A DNA stretch of 64,000 nucleotides from Ignavibacteria bacterium. GTDB lineage: Bacteria > Bacteroidota > Ignavibacteria > UBA10030 > SZUA-254. The DNA is taken from the NCBI GenBank assembly GCA_016178595.1, contig JACOSY010000060.1:1-64000 (forward strand), written 5' to 3'. How positions within the stretch are numbered: position 1 is the first letter of the stretch; the number at the start of each line of letters is the position of its first letter. The position numbers and the translations under genes are program-made. The notes beneath the pieces were generated by a model. The model worked only from the letters and a program-made list of their open reading frames with translations. It was not told where the DNA came from and ran no database searches. Shown piece by piece: positions 9,003-55,252 of the stretch.

Positions 9003-9749
9003 ATGCGCAGAGTAACGTTGGAAGTAGTTGTACTGCTGCTCATTGCCATATCCGCAAAGGCACAGACAGCCGAAGAAATTGTTGCCAAATACGTCAAGAC
9101 AATTGGCGGAATGGAAAAAATCCAAACCGTGAAGACGCTCCGTCGCACCGGCAAATTCACCGGAGGCGGTGGCTTCGAGGCAGCAATTCTCGAACAAAAC
9201 AAACGCCCGAACCTGGTGCGGCAGGAGTTTTCGTTGCAAGGTCTTACCGGCATCACCGCGTACGATGGCAAGGCCGGATGGAAAATTCAACCCTGGGGCG
9301 GCAAGAAGGACGCTGAGCCTCTTGGCGAGGAGGAAATGAAGAGCATCCTTGAGGACTCGGACTTCGATGGGCCGCTGATCAATTACCAGCAGAAGGGGAA
9401 CAAGGTCGAGTTCGTTGGCATGGAGCCGGTCGAGGGCACGGATGCTCTCAAGCTGAAGGTGACACTTGCCAACGGCGACATCCGATACTACTACATGGAC
9501 ACCGACTATTACGTACCGATCAAGATCGACATCAAACGAATGGTCCGAGGCGCAGAGCAGGAATATGAGACATCGCTTGGAGATTACAAGGAAGTGGAGG
9601 GATGGTACCTGCCGTTCTCGGTCGAAAATAATGTAAAGGGCAGCCAGGATAAGGGAAAAGTTACGTACGAAAAGATCGAAGCGAACGTGTCGATCGATGA
9701 CGACCAATTCCAGGCGCCAAAACCGGCTTCGAGCCCGGCCAACAAGTAG
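9003..9749 (+). CDS. Secreted LolA-like (outer-membrane lipoprotein-sorting-like) protein
   Basis: A 248-residue exported protein. The start is set at the ATG at 9003 because AAGGAG lies seven bases upstream and the next residues form a typical signal peptide (MRRVTLEVVVLLLIAISAKA, cut before Q). The mature part begins with TAEEIVAKYVKTIGGMEKI and continues as mostly beta strands, the pattern of the LolA/LolB-like lipoprotein-carrier fold seen in many FCB proteins of unknown role. An in-frame ATG at 8961 would bury the signal peptide and is unlikely. The gene lies 38 bases before a large secreted propeller protein and may be cotranscribed with it. Confidence 0.65.
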   Translation: MRRVTLEVVVLLLIAISAKAQTAEEIVAKYVKTIGGMEKIQTVKTLRRTGKFTGGGGFEAAILEQNKRPNLVRQEFSLQGLTGITAYDGKAGWKIQPWGGKKDAEPLGEEEMKSILEDSDFDGPLINYQQKGNKVEFVGMEPVEGTDALKLKVTLANGDIRYYYMDTDYYVPIKIDIKRMVRGAEQEYETSLGDYKEVEGWYLPFSVENNVKGSQDKGKVTYEKIEANVSIDDDQFQAPKPASSPANK

Positions 9750-9787
9750 AGCAATCAATTGACTTCATGACAAAAGGGGCAAACACT

Positions 9788-52485: not shown

Positions 52486-52863
52486 TTGAACCAACAGCAA
52501 CCTGAAATCGAAGTTGGTATGTCAAAGGATATAAATGTTCTCGATGACGTCTTTAAAGTGATTTGGGAGAGAATACGAGCTGCTACCGATTTGATTGGCC
52601 AGCTAAGGGAAGAAAGACGGATGCTTACCGATCAGCTCCGCGAAGTGGAACAGTCATACGCTGATCGGCTGAAGGCTTTTGAGAAAGAAATCATTATCTT
52701 GCGGTCAGATCTGATGACCAGGGACCAAGAACTCAAGCGACTCCGCGCCCAGCATACACAGTTGCTTAACGTGAATGGTCATCATTCATTTTCAGAAGAG
52801 GAACGAGAAATACTCAAGAGTAGGATTCGTGACTTAGTCACAAAGATCAACTCGTATTTGTAG
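52486..52863 (+). CDS. Coiled-coil protein next to zapA (ZapB-like candidate)
   Basis: A 125-residue protein with an almost continuous coiled coil (about 30-95, from IGQLREERRMLTDQLREVE onward) and a short helical tail. The start is TTG 52486, eight bases after AGGAG; a nearby ATG (52481) runs into a stop. Position directly before zapA suggests a cell-division partner that bundles FtsZ, in the manner of ZapB, but sequence alone does not show this. I do not recognise a named family. Confidence 0.6.
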   Translation: MNQQQPEIEVGMSKDINVLDDVFKVIWERIRAATDLIGQLREERRMLTDQLREVEQSYADRLKAFEKEIIILRSDLMTRDQELKRLRAQHTQLLNVNGHHSFSEEEREILKSRIRDLVTKINSYL

Positions 52864-52948: not shown

Positions 52949-53245
52949 ATGGCAGCCGATGGCAAAAGCATTAAAGTGAAGATATTTGGTTCGGAATATC
53001 CACTCCGCGGCGAGAGCGAAGAGCTCACGAAACGAGTGGCCAGTTATGTGGATCAGATGATCAGTACCATCCATAATAAGATTCCGGAGCAACCACCTCT
53101 CACCGTTGCCGTCCTCTCAGCGCTCAATATCACAGAGGATTTATTCAAGGAGCGGGAAAAAAACCGATCCCTGACGACTCTTGTTGAAAGTGAGGTTGCA
53201 AGGATCAGTGAGTACCTCGATCAGTTCTTGAATACCGGCGTGTAA
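52949..53245 (+). CDS. zapA: Cell division protein ZapA
   Basis: A 98-residue FtsZ-ring stabiliser. KVKIFGSEYPLRGESEEL and VASYVDQMISTI are the ZapA N-terminal beta-alpha domain, and TVAVLSALNITEDLFKERE starts the dimerising coiled coil. Length and layout are typical. It follows the coiled-coil gene and precedes a structured RNA candidate. Confidence 0.88.
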   Translation: MAADGKSIKVKIFGSEYPLRGESEELTKRVASYVDQMISTIHNKIPEQPPLTVAVLSALNITEDLFKEREKNRSLTTLVESEVARISEYLDQFLNTGV

Positions 53246-53284
53246 GAAATTTCTTCCTGTTCTTTACCATAGAAGATGGTGCAA

Positions 53285-53566
53285 TGATATCGATTCGGAA
53301 AACCGCACCGTCAGCCGCAAGCCGAAGCTGAAAAGCTTCGGTGACTGAGTCAAACATATTAAAGAATCTTACAGTTACTTTAATAGGGAACTCGACTCAT
53401 GGGCGTCATATTACGGGCCTCGACTCGCTCGCGCGGGATCTGCTTAACCCCAAAACATCGGGAAGCGGCGGACAGTGGATGTAAGAAACGTTCAGGGGAG
53501 TACCCACCGTGTTTTGAAAGAGATTCTTCAATACACTAGACGAAGTCGGCTGCGTGCGGTTTTTTG
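53285..53566 (+). ncRNA. Structured RNA candidate between zapA and rny
   Basis: The 376-base gap 53246-53621 has no gene but a consistent RNA fold. AAAACCGCAC (53299-53308) pairs with GTGCGGTTTT (53554-53563), extended by CAGCCG (53312-53317) with CGGCTG (53547-53552), closing a domain of about 265 bases that ends in six T residues. Inside are CCGAAGCT-gaaa-AGCTTCGG (53322-53341) and a two-part arm TGAGTC...TATTAAAG / CTTTAATA...GACTCA (53346-53399). It lacks the hallmark sequences of tmRNA, RNase P RNA and SRP RNA. Position after zapA recalls 6S RNA genes of other bacteria, but the fold looks branched and is longer than usual 6S RNA. The 5' end is not known. Confidence 0.6.
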
Positions 53567-53621
53567 TTTCCCGTTGCGCGACCAAATCTTTCACAATCGC
53601 CAATCCTGAGATGGAGCTATT

Positions 53622-55190
53622 ATGTTGTACGAAGCGTATATTCTGATCCCCATAGTCGTTGTTCTTGTTGGAGCTTCCTTCGCGGTTGGATGGTATGTCA
53701 ACATTCGAATCGGGCAGAGTAAAGTTTCCAGTGCCGAAGAACGGGCAAAAAAAATTATTAGCGATGCCGAGAAAGACTCCCAGGGTATTAAGAAGGAAAA
53801 ACTTCTCGAAGTCAAGGATGAATGGTATAAGAAGAAGCAGGAGTTTGAGCACGATGCCAATCAGAAGCGCAACAAGCTTCAGTCATTTGAGAAACAGCTT
53901 CAGGGGAGAGAGGATAATGTCGAGCGTAAAGTTGACCTTCTGAACAAGAAGGAAAAGGACACTAATGAAGTTAAGCGACAGTTGGACGAACGATTGAAAC
54001 AGGCCGAGGAGAAGCAAGCGGCGCTTCATCGGCTTATTCAAGAAGAAAATCAGCGACTCGAAAGAGTTTCCTCCCTTTCTCGCGAGGAGGCAAAAAAACT
54101 TCTTCTCGATAACTTAACAAATGAGACGAAAGTTGAAGCCGCGCAAATGCTCAAGGATATACGCGATACGGCGCGTCTTGAAGCAAAGAAGGATGCTCAA
54201 AAGATTGTTATCCAGGCTATTCAGCGTACAGCCGCCGACCATTGCGTTGAAACAACCGTGAGTGTGCTCCACATCCAGAATGATGAAATGAAGGGGCGCA
54301 TCATTGGAAAAGAAGGAAGAAACATTCGTGCGTTCGAAGCTGCCACGGGAGTTGATGTGATTGTAGATGACACACCGGAAGCGGTTATCCTCTCCGGTTT
54401 TGATCCGCTCCGTCGTGAAGTTGCGCGCCTCTCTCTTGAGCGACTCATCGCCGATGGACGAATCCATCCTGCGCGCATTGAAGAAGTTGTTGAAAAGGTT
54501 CGTAAGGAACTTGATGAAGAACTATTACACACGGGTGAAAACGCTTTGCTTGAAGCGGGATTACATGGCGGCCATCAAGAAATTCTCAAACATATCGGAC
54601 GGATGAAGTACCGTTCCAGCTATGGACAAAACCTCCTTGCACATAGTCTCGAGGTTGCATATCTCACAGGCTTGATGGCGGCGGAATTTGGATTCGATGC
54701 CAACCTTGCCAAGCGAGCGGGACTTCTTCACGATATTGGAAAAACAGTCGATCGCAGTGTCGAAGGACCCCACGCGCTTCTTGGTTTCGACTTGACGAAA
54801 AAATTTGGCGAGCATCCGCTTGTTGTCAATGCCGTTGGCTCGCATCACGAAGATATTCCGATGGAACATCCGATTGCGGCACTCGTTCAAGCAGCCGATG
54901 CCATCAGCGGAGCACGACCCGGTGCTCGTCGGGAATCGGTCGAAGGCTATGCGAAGCGACTCGAACAACTGGAAAGTATGGCCAAATCGTTTGACGGCGT
55001 TGCAACGACATACGCAATCCAGGCTGGACGCGAAATCCGCGTGATTGTCGAGCATGATAAAATTGATGATGCCATGGCTGACCAGCTTGCACACGATATC
55101 GCAAAGAAAATTCAGCAGGAAATGGGTTACCCCGGCCAAATCAAAGTCATAGTAATTCGTGAGAGACGCTCGATTGCATACGCGAAGTAG
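53622..55190 (+). CDS. rny: Ribonuclease Y
   Basis: A 522-residue membrane-anchored endoribonuclease that starts mRNA decay. It has an N-terminal membrane helix (7-27), a long coiled coil (30-200), a KH RNA-binding domain (GRIIGKEGRNIRAFEAATG, about 225-243) and an HD phosphohydrolase domain with LLHDIGKTVDR and GSHHED. The ATG is five bases after GGAG. It follows the structured RNA and ends in a strong terminator. Confidence 0.95.
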   Translation: MLYEAYILIPIVVVLVGASFAVGWYVNIRIGQSKVSSAEERAKKIISDAEKDSQGIKKEKLLEVKDEWYKKKQEFEHDANQKRNKLQSFEKQLQGREDNVERKVDLLNKKEKDTNEVKRQLDERLKQAEEKQAALHRLIQEENQRLERVSSLSREEAKKLLLDNLTNETKVEAAQMLKDIRDTARLEAKKDAQKIVIQAIQRTAADHCVETTVSVLHIQNDEMKGRIIGKEGRNIRAFEAATGVDVIVDDTPEAVILSGFDPLRREVARLSLERLIADGRIHPARIEEVVEKVRKELDEELLHTGENALLEAGLHGGHQEILKHIGRMKYRSSYGQNLLAHSLEVAYLTGLMAAEFGFDANLAKRAGLLHDIGKTVDRSVEGPHALLGFDLTKKFGEHPLVVNAVGSHHEDIPMEHPIAALVQAADAISGARPGARRESVEGYAKRLEQLESMAKSFDGVATTYAIQAGREIRVIVEHDKIDDAMADQLAHDIAKKIQQEMGYPGQIKVIVIRERRSIAYAK

Positions 55191-55213: not shown

Positions 55214-55252
55214 AGCCAGTACCTGTCTTGTTGAGGATACTGGCTTTTTTTT
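55214..55252 (+). terminator. Rho-independent terminator after rny
   Basis: AGCCAGTA (55214-55221) pairs with TACTGGCT (55238-55245), with a further CCT/AGG inside, followed by eight T residues. It lies 24 bases after the rny stop. Confidence 0.9.

What the first reader, a model, noticed from the sequence alone, without database searches (positions are those of the whole stretch)
53285..53566. Unassigned structured RNA of about 265 bases between zapA and rny
The gap carries no gene, yet its two ends pair over 16 bases, two internal arms are perfectly paired, and the 3' strand runs into six T residues, as expected for a stable transcript ending at a terminator. It does not show tmRNA, RNase P or SRP signatures. 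A location after zapA is where 6S RNA sits in some bacteria, so it may be a divergent 6S RNA or a lineage-specific RNA. Proximity to RNase Y might be functional.
Basis: partly seen in the sequence, partly recalled or inferred. Interest (0 to 1): 0.7.

Follow-up and report, generated by a model that had tools for sequence, protein, structure and literature searches.

The report
Divergent 6S RNA gene in Ignavibacteria
The unlabelled gap between zapA and rny holds a 6S RNA, a long-known small RNA that bacteria use to hold back their RNA polymerase, in a form so divergent that the standard Rfam model does not detect it in this genome.

Summary
In detail: window 53299-53565 (+) is a stable, non-coding fold (z -4.75) with a 16-pair outer stem running into six T. 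It is a divergent 6S (SsrS) RNA.

The window's own copy scores nothing with Rfam. Its orthologues in order- and class-mates, at the same zapA-rny site, pass the curated RF00013 cut-off (55.7, 49.8, 47.1 and 46.9 bits against 46.4). The first of these is the very place the window's DNA hits by BLAST. Other families of the phylum carry 6S-Flavo in the same gap (30 of 30 loci beside rny).

In 55 related sequences the closing stem, central bubble and terminal stem show strong compensatory change (194 two-sided cells against 62 in shuffles). A model built from them finds the RNA in 137 of 248 genomes of the phylum, beside rny in 106 of 107 comparable cases.

Inferred mechanism: it mimics an open promoter, traps the housekeeping RNA polymerase, and is released by copying a short pRNA, predicted 5'-GUAAGAUUCUUUAAUA from C53372. 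Hairpins in both bubble strands compete with the closing helix.

Less certain: a boxA-like GTTCTTTA (53259-53266) upstream suggests Nus-factor antitermination. Overall: a new, unannotated member of a known kind.

The parts
53299..53565 (+). 6S RNA (ssrS) gene, from the closing stem to the end of the U tract
   Evidence: nhmmer/CM homologues at the same site, RF00013 in order-mates, model R1 hit 53302-53569 at 198.8 bits
53299..53316 (+). P1 outer stem, 5' strand (pairs with 53548-53563)
   Evidence: six core pairs nearly all kept, with compensatory changes (GC to AU, AU to UA, CG to UA and GC)
53548..53565 (+). P1 3' strand and terminal U run (53560-53565)
53321..53342 (+). Extra hairpin arm on the 5' strand, seen only in the window's closest relatives; sequence changes but pairing persists
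53357..53370 (+). P2 (closing stem next to the bubble), 5' strand; predicted pRNA template
   Evidence: 89% of cells paired in the inner nine pairs; CG to UA in 13 sequences; aligns with the 6S P2 helix
53520..53533 (+). P2 3' strand
53372..53372 (+). Predicted pRNA start (template C); pRNA 5'-GUAAGAUUCUUUAAUA
   Evidence: inference: model column of E. coli U44 carried over through L235
53357..53385 (+). P3 hairpin in the 5' bubble strand, competing with P2
   Evidence: mean z -2.4 over 82 sequences; no signal in 21 from other lineages
53386..53391 (+). Conserved bubble motif GGGAAC (GGGAGC in most relatives; GGGagc in the 6S consensus)
53400..53406 (+). P4 5' strand (pairs with 53488-53494)
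   Evidence: 94.8% of cells paired, 7 of 7 pairs with changes on both sides
53411..53414 (+). P5 5' strand (pairs with 53481-53484)
   Evidence: 97.7% of cells paired, 3 of 4 pairs with changes on both sides
53418..53421 (+). P6 5' strand CCUC (pairs with GUGG 53475-53478)
   Evidence: also CCAC/GUGG, CCCC/GGGG and CUUC/GUAG variants
53422..53474 (+). Variable terminal hairpins
53475..53494 (+). 3' strands of P6, P5 and P4 with the conserved GUGGA block (GUGGAAG in most relatives)
53503..53511 (+). Conserved 3' bubble strand CCCACCGUG (CACCCACC in the 6S consensus)
53509..53536 (+). P7 hairpin in the 3' bubble strand, competing with P2 (possible counterpart of the E. coli release hairpin)
53259..53266 (+). 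boxA-like GTTCTTTA between the zapA stop codon and the 6S RNA
   Evidence: role inferred
52949..53245 (+). zapA, the shared upstream neighbour of 6S RNA
53622..55190 (+). rny (RNase Y), the downstream neighbour in this phylum

Best explanation
The element is the 6S RNA of this Ignavibacteria lineage. It folds into a rod: an outer closing stem (P1-P2), a large central bubble and a terminal stem (P4-P6). By homology it lies in the active-site cleft of RNA polymerase carrying the housekeeping sigma factor as if it were melted promoter DNA, so it lowers transcription when it accumulates. When nucleotides become plentiful the polymerase copies a short pRNA from the 5' bubble strand into P2. That opens P2, frees its 3' strand to close the P7 hairpin, and ejects the RNA. 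Shown here: homology, synteny, structure and the competition between P2 and P3/P7 in predicted folds. Inferred from known 6S biology: polymerase binding, pRNA synthesis, release and growth-phase role.
For: The window's DNA hits G049 contig C117 at 9542-9591 and 9699-9769 by BLAST; RF00013 hits the same place, 9520-9763, at 55.7 bits against a cut-off of 46.4, and three more class genomes pass. Conserved blocks GGGAGC, GCC, GGAAG, CACCCACC and GGUUC coincide with the 6S consensus. 6S-Flavo sits beside rny in 30 of 30 loci of other families. Strong covariation of all stems: 86% of cells paired against 36-47% when slid by 1-3 columns, 194 against 62 two-sided cells. Model R1 finds 137 of 248 genomes, 106 of 107 directly upstream of rny on the same strand, including the short gaps L198 and L203. 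P2 state -92.1 and P3+P7 state -94.6 kcal/mol, nearly equal. Bacteroides 6S RNA and its pRNAs were detected by dRNA-seq (PMC7366714).
Against: The window's own sequence and most of its family give no RF00013 match. R1 does not hit E. coli 6S at E up to 1 and hits 6S-Flavo loci only weakly (E 0.012 at best), so the link runs through intermediates. No expression or binding data were found for this lineage. In the predicted minimum-energy fold P2 is open, although 6S binding is thought to need it closed; energies of free RNA do not settle this.
Confidence: 0.93

Rival explanations
1. A lineage-specific structured RNA of unknown kind that merely shares the zapA-rny site with 6S RNA.
For: No Rfam match for the window sequence itself up to E 10 other than chance hits; size of 265 nt against about 184 in E. 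coli; extra hairpins.
Against: The BLAST/nhmmer orthologues in the same order are themselves RF00013 matches over the curated cut-off, end to end of the model; the conserved bubble motifs are those of the 6S consensus.
Confidence: 0.03
2. A cis-acting leader of rny: a structured 5' UTR through which RNase Y controls its own mRNA, in the manner of the rne leader of E. coli.
For: It lies directly upstream of rny on the same strand in 106 of 107 genomes.
Against: The RNA ends in its own stem plus U run before rny; the same RNA family sits before fau, not rny, in E. coli and has a known trans-acting role; genomes without a detected rny (family f17) still carry it.
Confidence: 0.01
3. A 6S-related RNA that binds core RNA polymerase rather than the holoenzyme, as Ms1 of mycobacteria does.
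For: Ms1 also has a 6S-like structure (PMC4191392 and PMC9130861, abstracts).
Against: This RNA's relatives pass the RF00013 model and keep the 6S bubble motifs and the P2 template region; pRNAs are reported for Bacteroides 6S.
Confidence: 0.03

Closest known systems
6S / SsrS RNA, Rfam RF00013 (E. coli ssrS)
   Same: Gene order zapA-6S; rod with closing stem, central bubble and terminal stem; motifs GGGAGC, GCC, GGAAG, CACCCACC and GGUUC; a 3'-bubble hairpin that competes with P2.
   Different: About 265 nt instead of 184; an extra 5'-bubble hairpin P3 and an extra 5' arm; followed by rny instead of fau; the window's copy scores nothing with the RF00013 model directly.
6S-Flavo, RF01685
   Same: Same gap between zapA and rny; P1, then a P2 helix AAACUC/GAGUUU where this lineage has AAGAACCU/AGGUUCUU; often a GTTCTTT upstream.
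   Different: Shorter, with a reduced terminal stem; direct similarity to model R1 only marginal (E 0.012).
Bacteroidales-1, RF01693 (noted in Rfam as '6S-Bacteroidales RNA suggested')
   Same: Matches the zapA-rny gap of family f23 loci L149 and L150, where RF01685 also matches.
   Different: Matches there lie below its own cut-off; no match in the window's lineage was seen.
B. subtilis 6S-1 and mycobacterial Ms1
   Same: 6S-type structure that binds RNA polymerase (PMC8876501, PMC4191392).
   Different: 6S-1 lacks the extended competing 3'-bubble hairpin and uses a bubble-collapse helix instead (PMC8876501); Ms1 binds the core enzyme.

Membership tests
6S RNA (SsrS) | Homology to recognised 6S RNAs | tested here: met
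   Orthologues in the same order and class match RF00013 over the full model, four above the cut-off, at the site the window's DNA hits
6S RNA (SsrS) | Closing stem, large central bubble, interrupted terminal stem | tested here: met
   Covariation of P1, P2, P4, P5, P6 around a conserved bubble
6S RNA (SsrS) | Conserved bubble motifs of the family | tested here: met
   Alignments to the RF00013 consensus; same columns conserved in A1
6S RNA (SsrS) | Genomic linkage seen in known 6S genes (downstream of zapA; beside rny in this phylum) | tested here: met
6S RNA (SsrS) | Single copy in the genome (usual, not obligatory) | tested here: met
   One match in G000 with DNA and with R1
Rfam RF00013 automatic detection (a threshold of the model, not a biological feature of 6S RNA) | The window sequence itself scores at least 46.4 bits | tested here: not met
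   No match up to E 10 and none in the genome; orthologues in order-mates pass
6S RNA (SsrS) | Binds the housekeeping RNA polymerase holoenzyme | not testable with these tools
   needs co-immunoprecipitation or gel shift
6S RNA (SsrS) | Serves as template for pRNA and is released by it | not testable with these tools
   predicted start C53372 and sequence given; needs small-RNA sequencing
6S-Flavo RF01685 | Score over the family cut-off (85 bits) | tested here: not met
   No match in G000 or its order; relation is by synteny and shared 6S origin only
tmRNA, RNase P RNA, SRP RNA | Match to the family model at this site | tested here: not met
   None at this site; RNase P and SRP RNA lie elsewhere in the genome

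The most novel reading that the evidence does not exclude
The 6S gene of this phylum is often placed behind a boxA element, so that zapA-6S transcripts are made by a Nus-factor antitermination complex as rRNA is. This would shield an untranslated RNA from Rho and tie the supply of the polymerase inhibitor to the machinery that makes ribosomes.
Probability: 0.35. Interest if true: 0.55.

Novelty: new member of a known kind. Interest (0 to 1): 0.35.

Why it matters
It fills a gap in the map of a global regulator: much of this phylum appears to lack 6S RNA when searched with the standard model, and it does not. It joins RF00013, 6S-Flavo and possibly Bacteroidales-1 through shared synteny and intermediates, and model R1 could serve to annotate it. 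The zapA-6S linkage holds in both Proteobacteria and this phylum, which suggests it is old. A competing 3'-bubble hairpin outside the gamma-proteobacteria bears on whether the E. coli type of release is derived or ancestral. The boxA-like element, if it works, would add a new layer of control.

Tried and rejected
Rfam scan of the element alone at E up to 10: only chance hits (STnc220, DUF805b). tmRNA, RNase P and SRP RNA as identities: none match here, and RNase P and SRP RNA are elsewhere in the genome. I first read the AAGAAUCU/AGAUUCUU pairing as a pseudoknot with hairpin P3; in families without P3 it is simply the continuous closing helix P2, so a competing fold is the simpler reading, though a kissing contact between the loops of P3 and P7 is not excluded. 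GTTCTTT as a -35 promoter box: its distance to P1 varies (28-52 nt in this lineage; about 25 nt in 6S-Flavo loci, read), which argues against a fixed promoter element. GTTCTTT is not universal: absent where zapA abuts P1 and from the E. coli zapA-ssrS gap. Wehner et al. 2014 on 6S dissemination, the likeliest place for an earlier prediction in this lineage, is not held. No held paper mentions 6S RNA with Ignavibacteria or Chlorobaculum tepidum or boxA with 6S RNA.

Full report
What is there. The window comes from a 3.10-Mb genome of 61 contigs whose nearest named relatives are Ignavibacteria. Between zapA (52949-53245) and rny (53622-55190) no conserved gene is found. The RNA strand 53285-53575 folds at -105.6 kcal/mol against -81.3 for shuffles, z -4.75.

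Conservation. A BLAST of the gap finds it in 45 of 60 relatives, mostly once per genome or as two pieces of one place. An iterated nucleotide profile finds it in 109 of 110 loci, including the rny loci fetched independently with RNase Y as the query. The alignment shows conserved blocks separated by variable hairpins.

Structure. On 55 sequences the named structure (P1, P2, P4, P5, P6) pairs in 86.1% of cells, against 36-47% when the 3' strand is slid by one to three columns, and has 194 two-sided changes against 62.5 in shuffles. P4 shows two-sided changes in all seven pairs, P5 in three of four (UUAC/GUAA to GCAC/GUGU or UUGC/GCAA). P6 changes from CCUC/GUGG to CCAC/GUGG, and in more distant members to CCCC/GGGG or CUUC/GUAG. 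Shuffles do not remove relatedness, but the slid controls do keep it, and the excess is large.

Identity. The Rfam scan of the element itself gives nothing useful and RF00013 is silent on the own genome. The synteny gave the first lead: the 6S-Flavo family lies beside rny in 30 of 30 loci from other families of the phylum, with a zapA-sized ORF upstream in the two inspected. I then took zapA-rny gaps from many families of the phylum and scanned a sample with Rfam. L182, a genome of the same class, matches RF00013 at 47.1 bits, over the cut-off, in that gap. A class-wide search gave ten genomes with RF00013 matches, four over the cut-off. The best, G049 C117:9520-9763 at 55.7 bits, covers the places that the window's own DNA hit by BLAST in that genome, 9542-9591 and 9699-9769. 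The alignments place GGGAGC, GCC, GGAAG, CACCCACC and GGUUC of this family on the same blocks of the 6S consensus, and our P2 on the 6S P2. In E. coli the order is zapA-ssrS-fau.

Spread. A covariance model from the 55 sequences (R1) finds the RNA in 137 of 248 genomes of the phylum. Where both coordinates were printed, 106 of 107 lie 19-623 nt upstream of rny on the same strand; the exception has its rny fragment on another contig. R1 also reaches the short gaps L198 (E 4.7e-7) and L203 (6.1e-5), and weakly the 6S-Flavo loci L125 and L128 at the right place (E 0.012 and 0.033). It does not reach E. coli 6S, so the chain to E. coli runs through RF00013.

Mechanism. Shown: homology, position, rod structure. 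Inferred from 6S biology: binding to the housekeeping holoenzyme, copying of a pRNA, release. The model column of E. coli U44, the known pRNA start (position from my own knowledge), was identified and carried through L235 to window C53372; the pRNA would be 5'-GUAAGAUUCUUUAAUA. The exact start may be off by one or two bases, because the alignment has a gap nearby. Bacteroides 6S RNA and pRNAs were seen by dRNA-seq (PMC7366714), so the mechanism is at work in this phylum.

The switch. Helix P2 (53357-53370 with 53520-53533) competes with a hairpin in each bubble strand: P3 (53357-53385) and P7 (53509-53536). Both have compensatory changes. P3 has a mean z of -2.4 over 82 sequences of this lineage and no signal in 21 from other lineages (-0.3); P7 has -1.8 and -1.1. 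The two folds differ by 2.5 kcal/mol (-92.1 and -94.6). In gamma-proteobacteria an extended 3'-bubble hairpin forms when P2 opens and drives release, while B. subtilis and Aquifex 6S RNAs lack it (PMC8876501). P7 looks like a counterpart of that hairpin, although here part of the P2 strand sits in the loop rather than the stem. A kissing contact between the two loops is possible and not excluded.

boxA. GTTCTTTA lies at 53259-53266. GYTCTTT precedes the RNA in 45 of 89 sequences of this lineage, most of those with room between zapA and P1, and in 23 of 30 6S-Flavo loci. It occurs in one of 18 zapA-rny or upstream-of-rny gaps that gave no R1 match. The rRNA leaders of eight genomes, own genome included, all have GTTCTTTGA about 80-145 nt before 16S, the usual place of boxA. 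These counts are not corrected for relatedness. I take it as a lead, not a result.

Novelty. The kind is known. What is new here is the recognition of 6S RNA in this lineage, the link between RF00013 and 6S-Flavo through intermediates, the competing hairpins and the boxA-like element. Weinberg et al. 2010 already treat 6S-Flavo as a 6S RNA (PMC2864571). Whether Wehner et al. 2014 list a 6S RNA for this lineage could not be checked.

Noticed in passing
window 53259-53266; L121-L150; L246: boxA-like GTTCTTT just after the zapA stop codon and before 6S RNA in many genomes of this phylum, identical in core to the boxA-like element of the rRNA leaders of relatives and of the own genome.
   Followed up: partly
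L149 1480-1628; L150 1478-1625: The same zapA-rny RNA matches both RF01685 (6S-Flavo) and RF01693 (Bacteroidales-1); the Rfam copy lists no clan joining them or RF00013.
   Followed up: partly
window 52486-52863: A 125-residue coiled-coil ORF directly upstream of zapA looks ZapB-like, so the order zapB-zapA-6S would parallel the one described for beta- and gamma-proteobacteria (PMC7641849).
   Followed up: no
whole genome G000: No tmRNA found in the window's genome, although 19 of 21 genomes in the same search have one; most likely a gap in the assembly.
   Followed up: partly
window 55218-55251: A strong stem plus U run after the rny stop codon, reported by Rfam as a chance RybB match, looks like the rny terminator.
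   Followed up: no
families f21, f33, f44, f25, f31, f32 of the phylum: In these families the gap before rny is short or carries no 6S RNA that model R1 detects; where their 6S gene lies was not traced.
   Followed up: no
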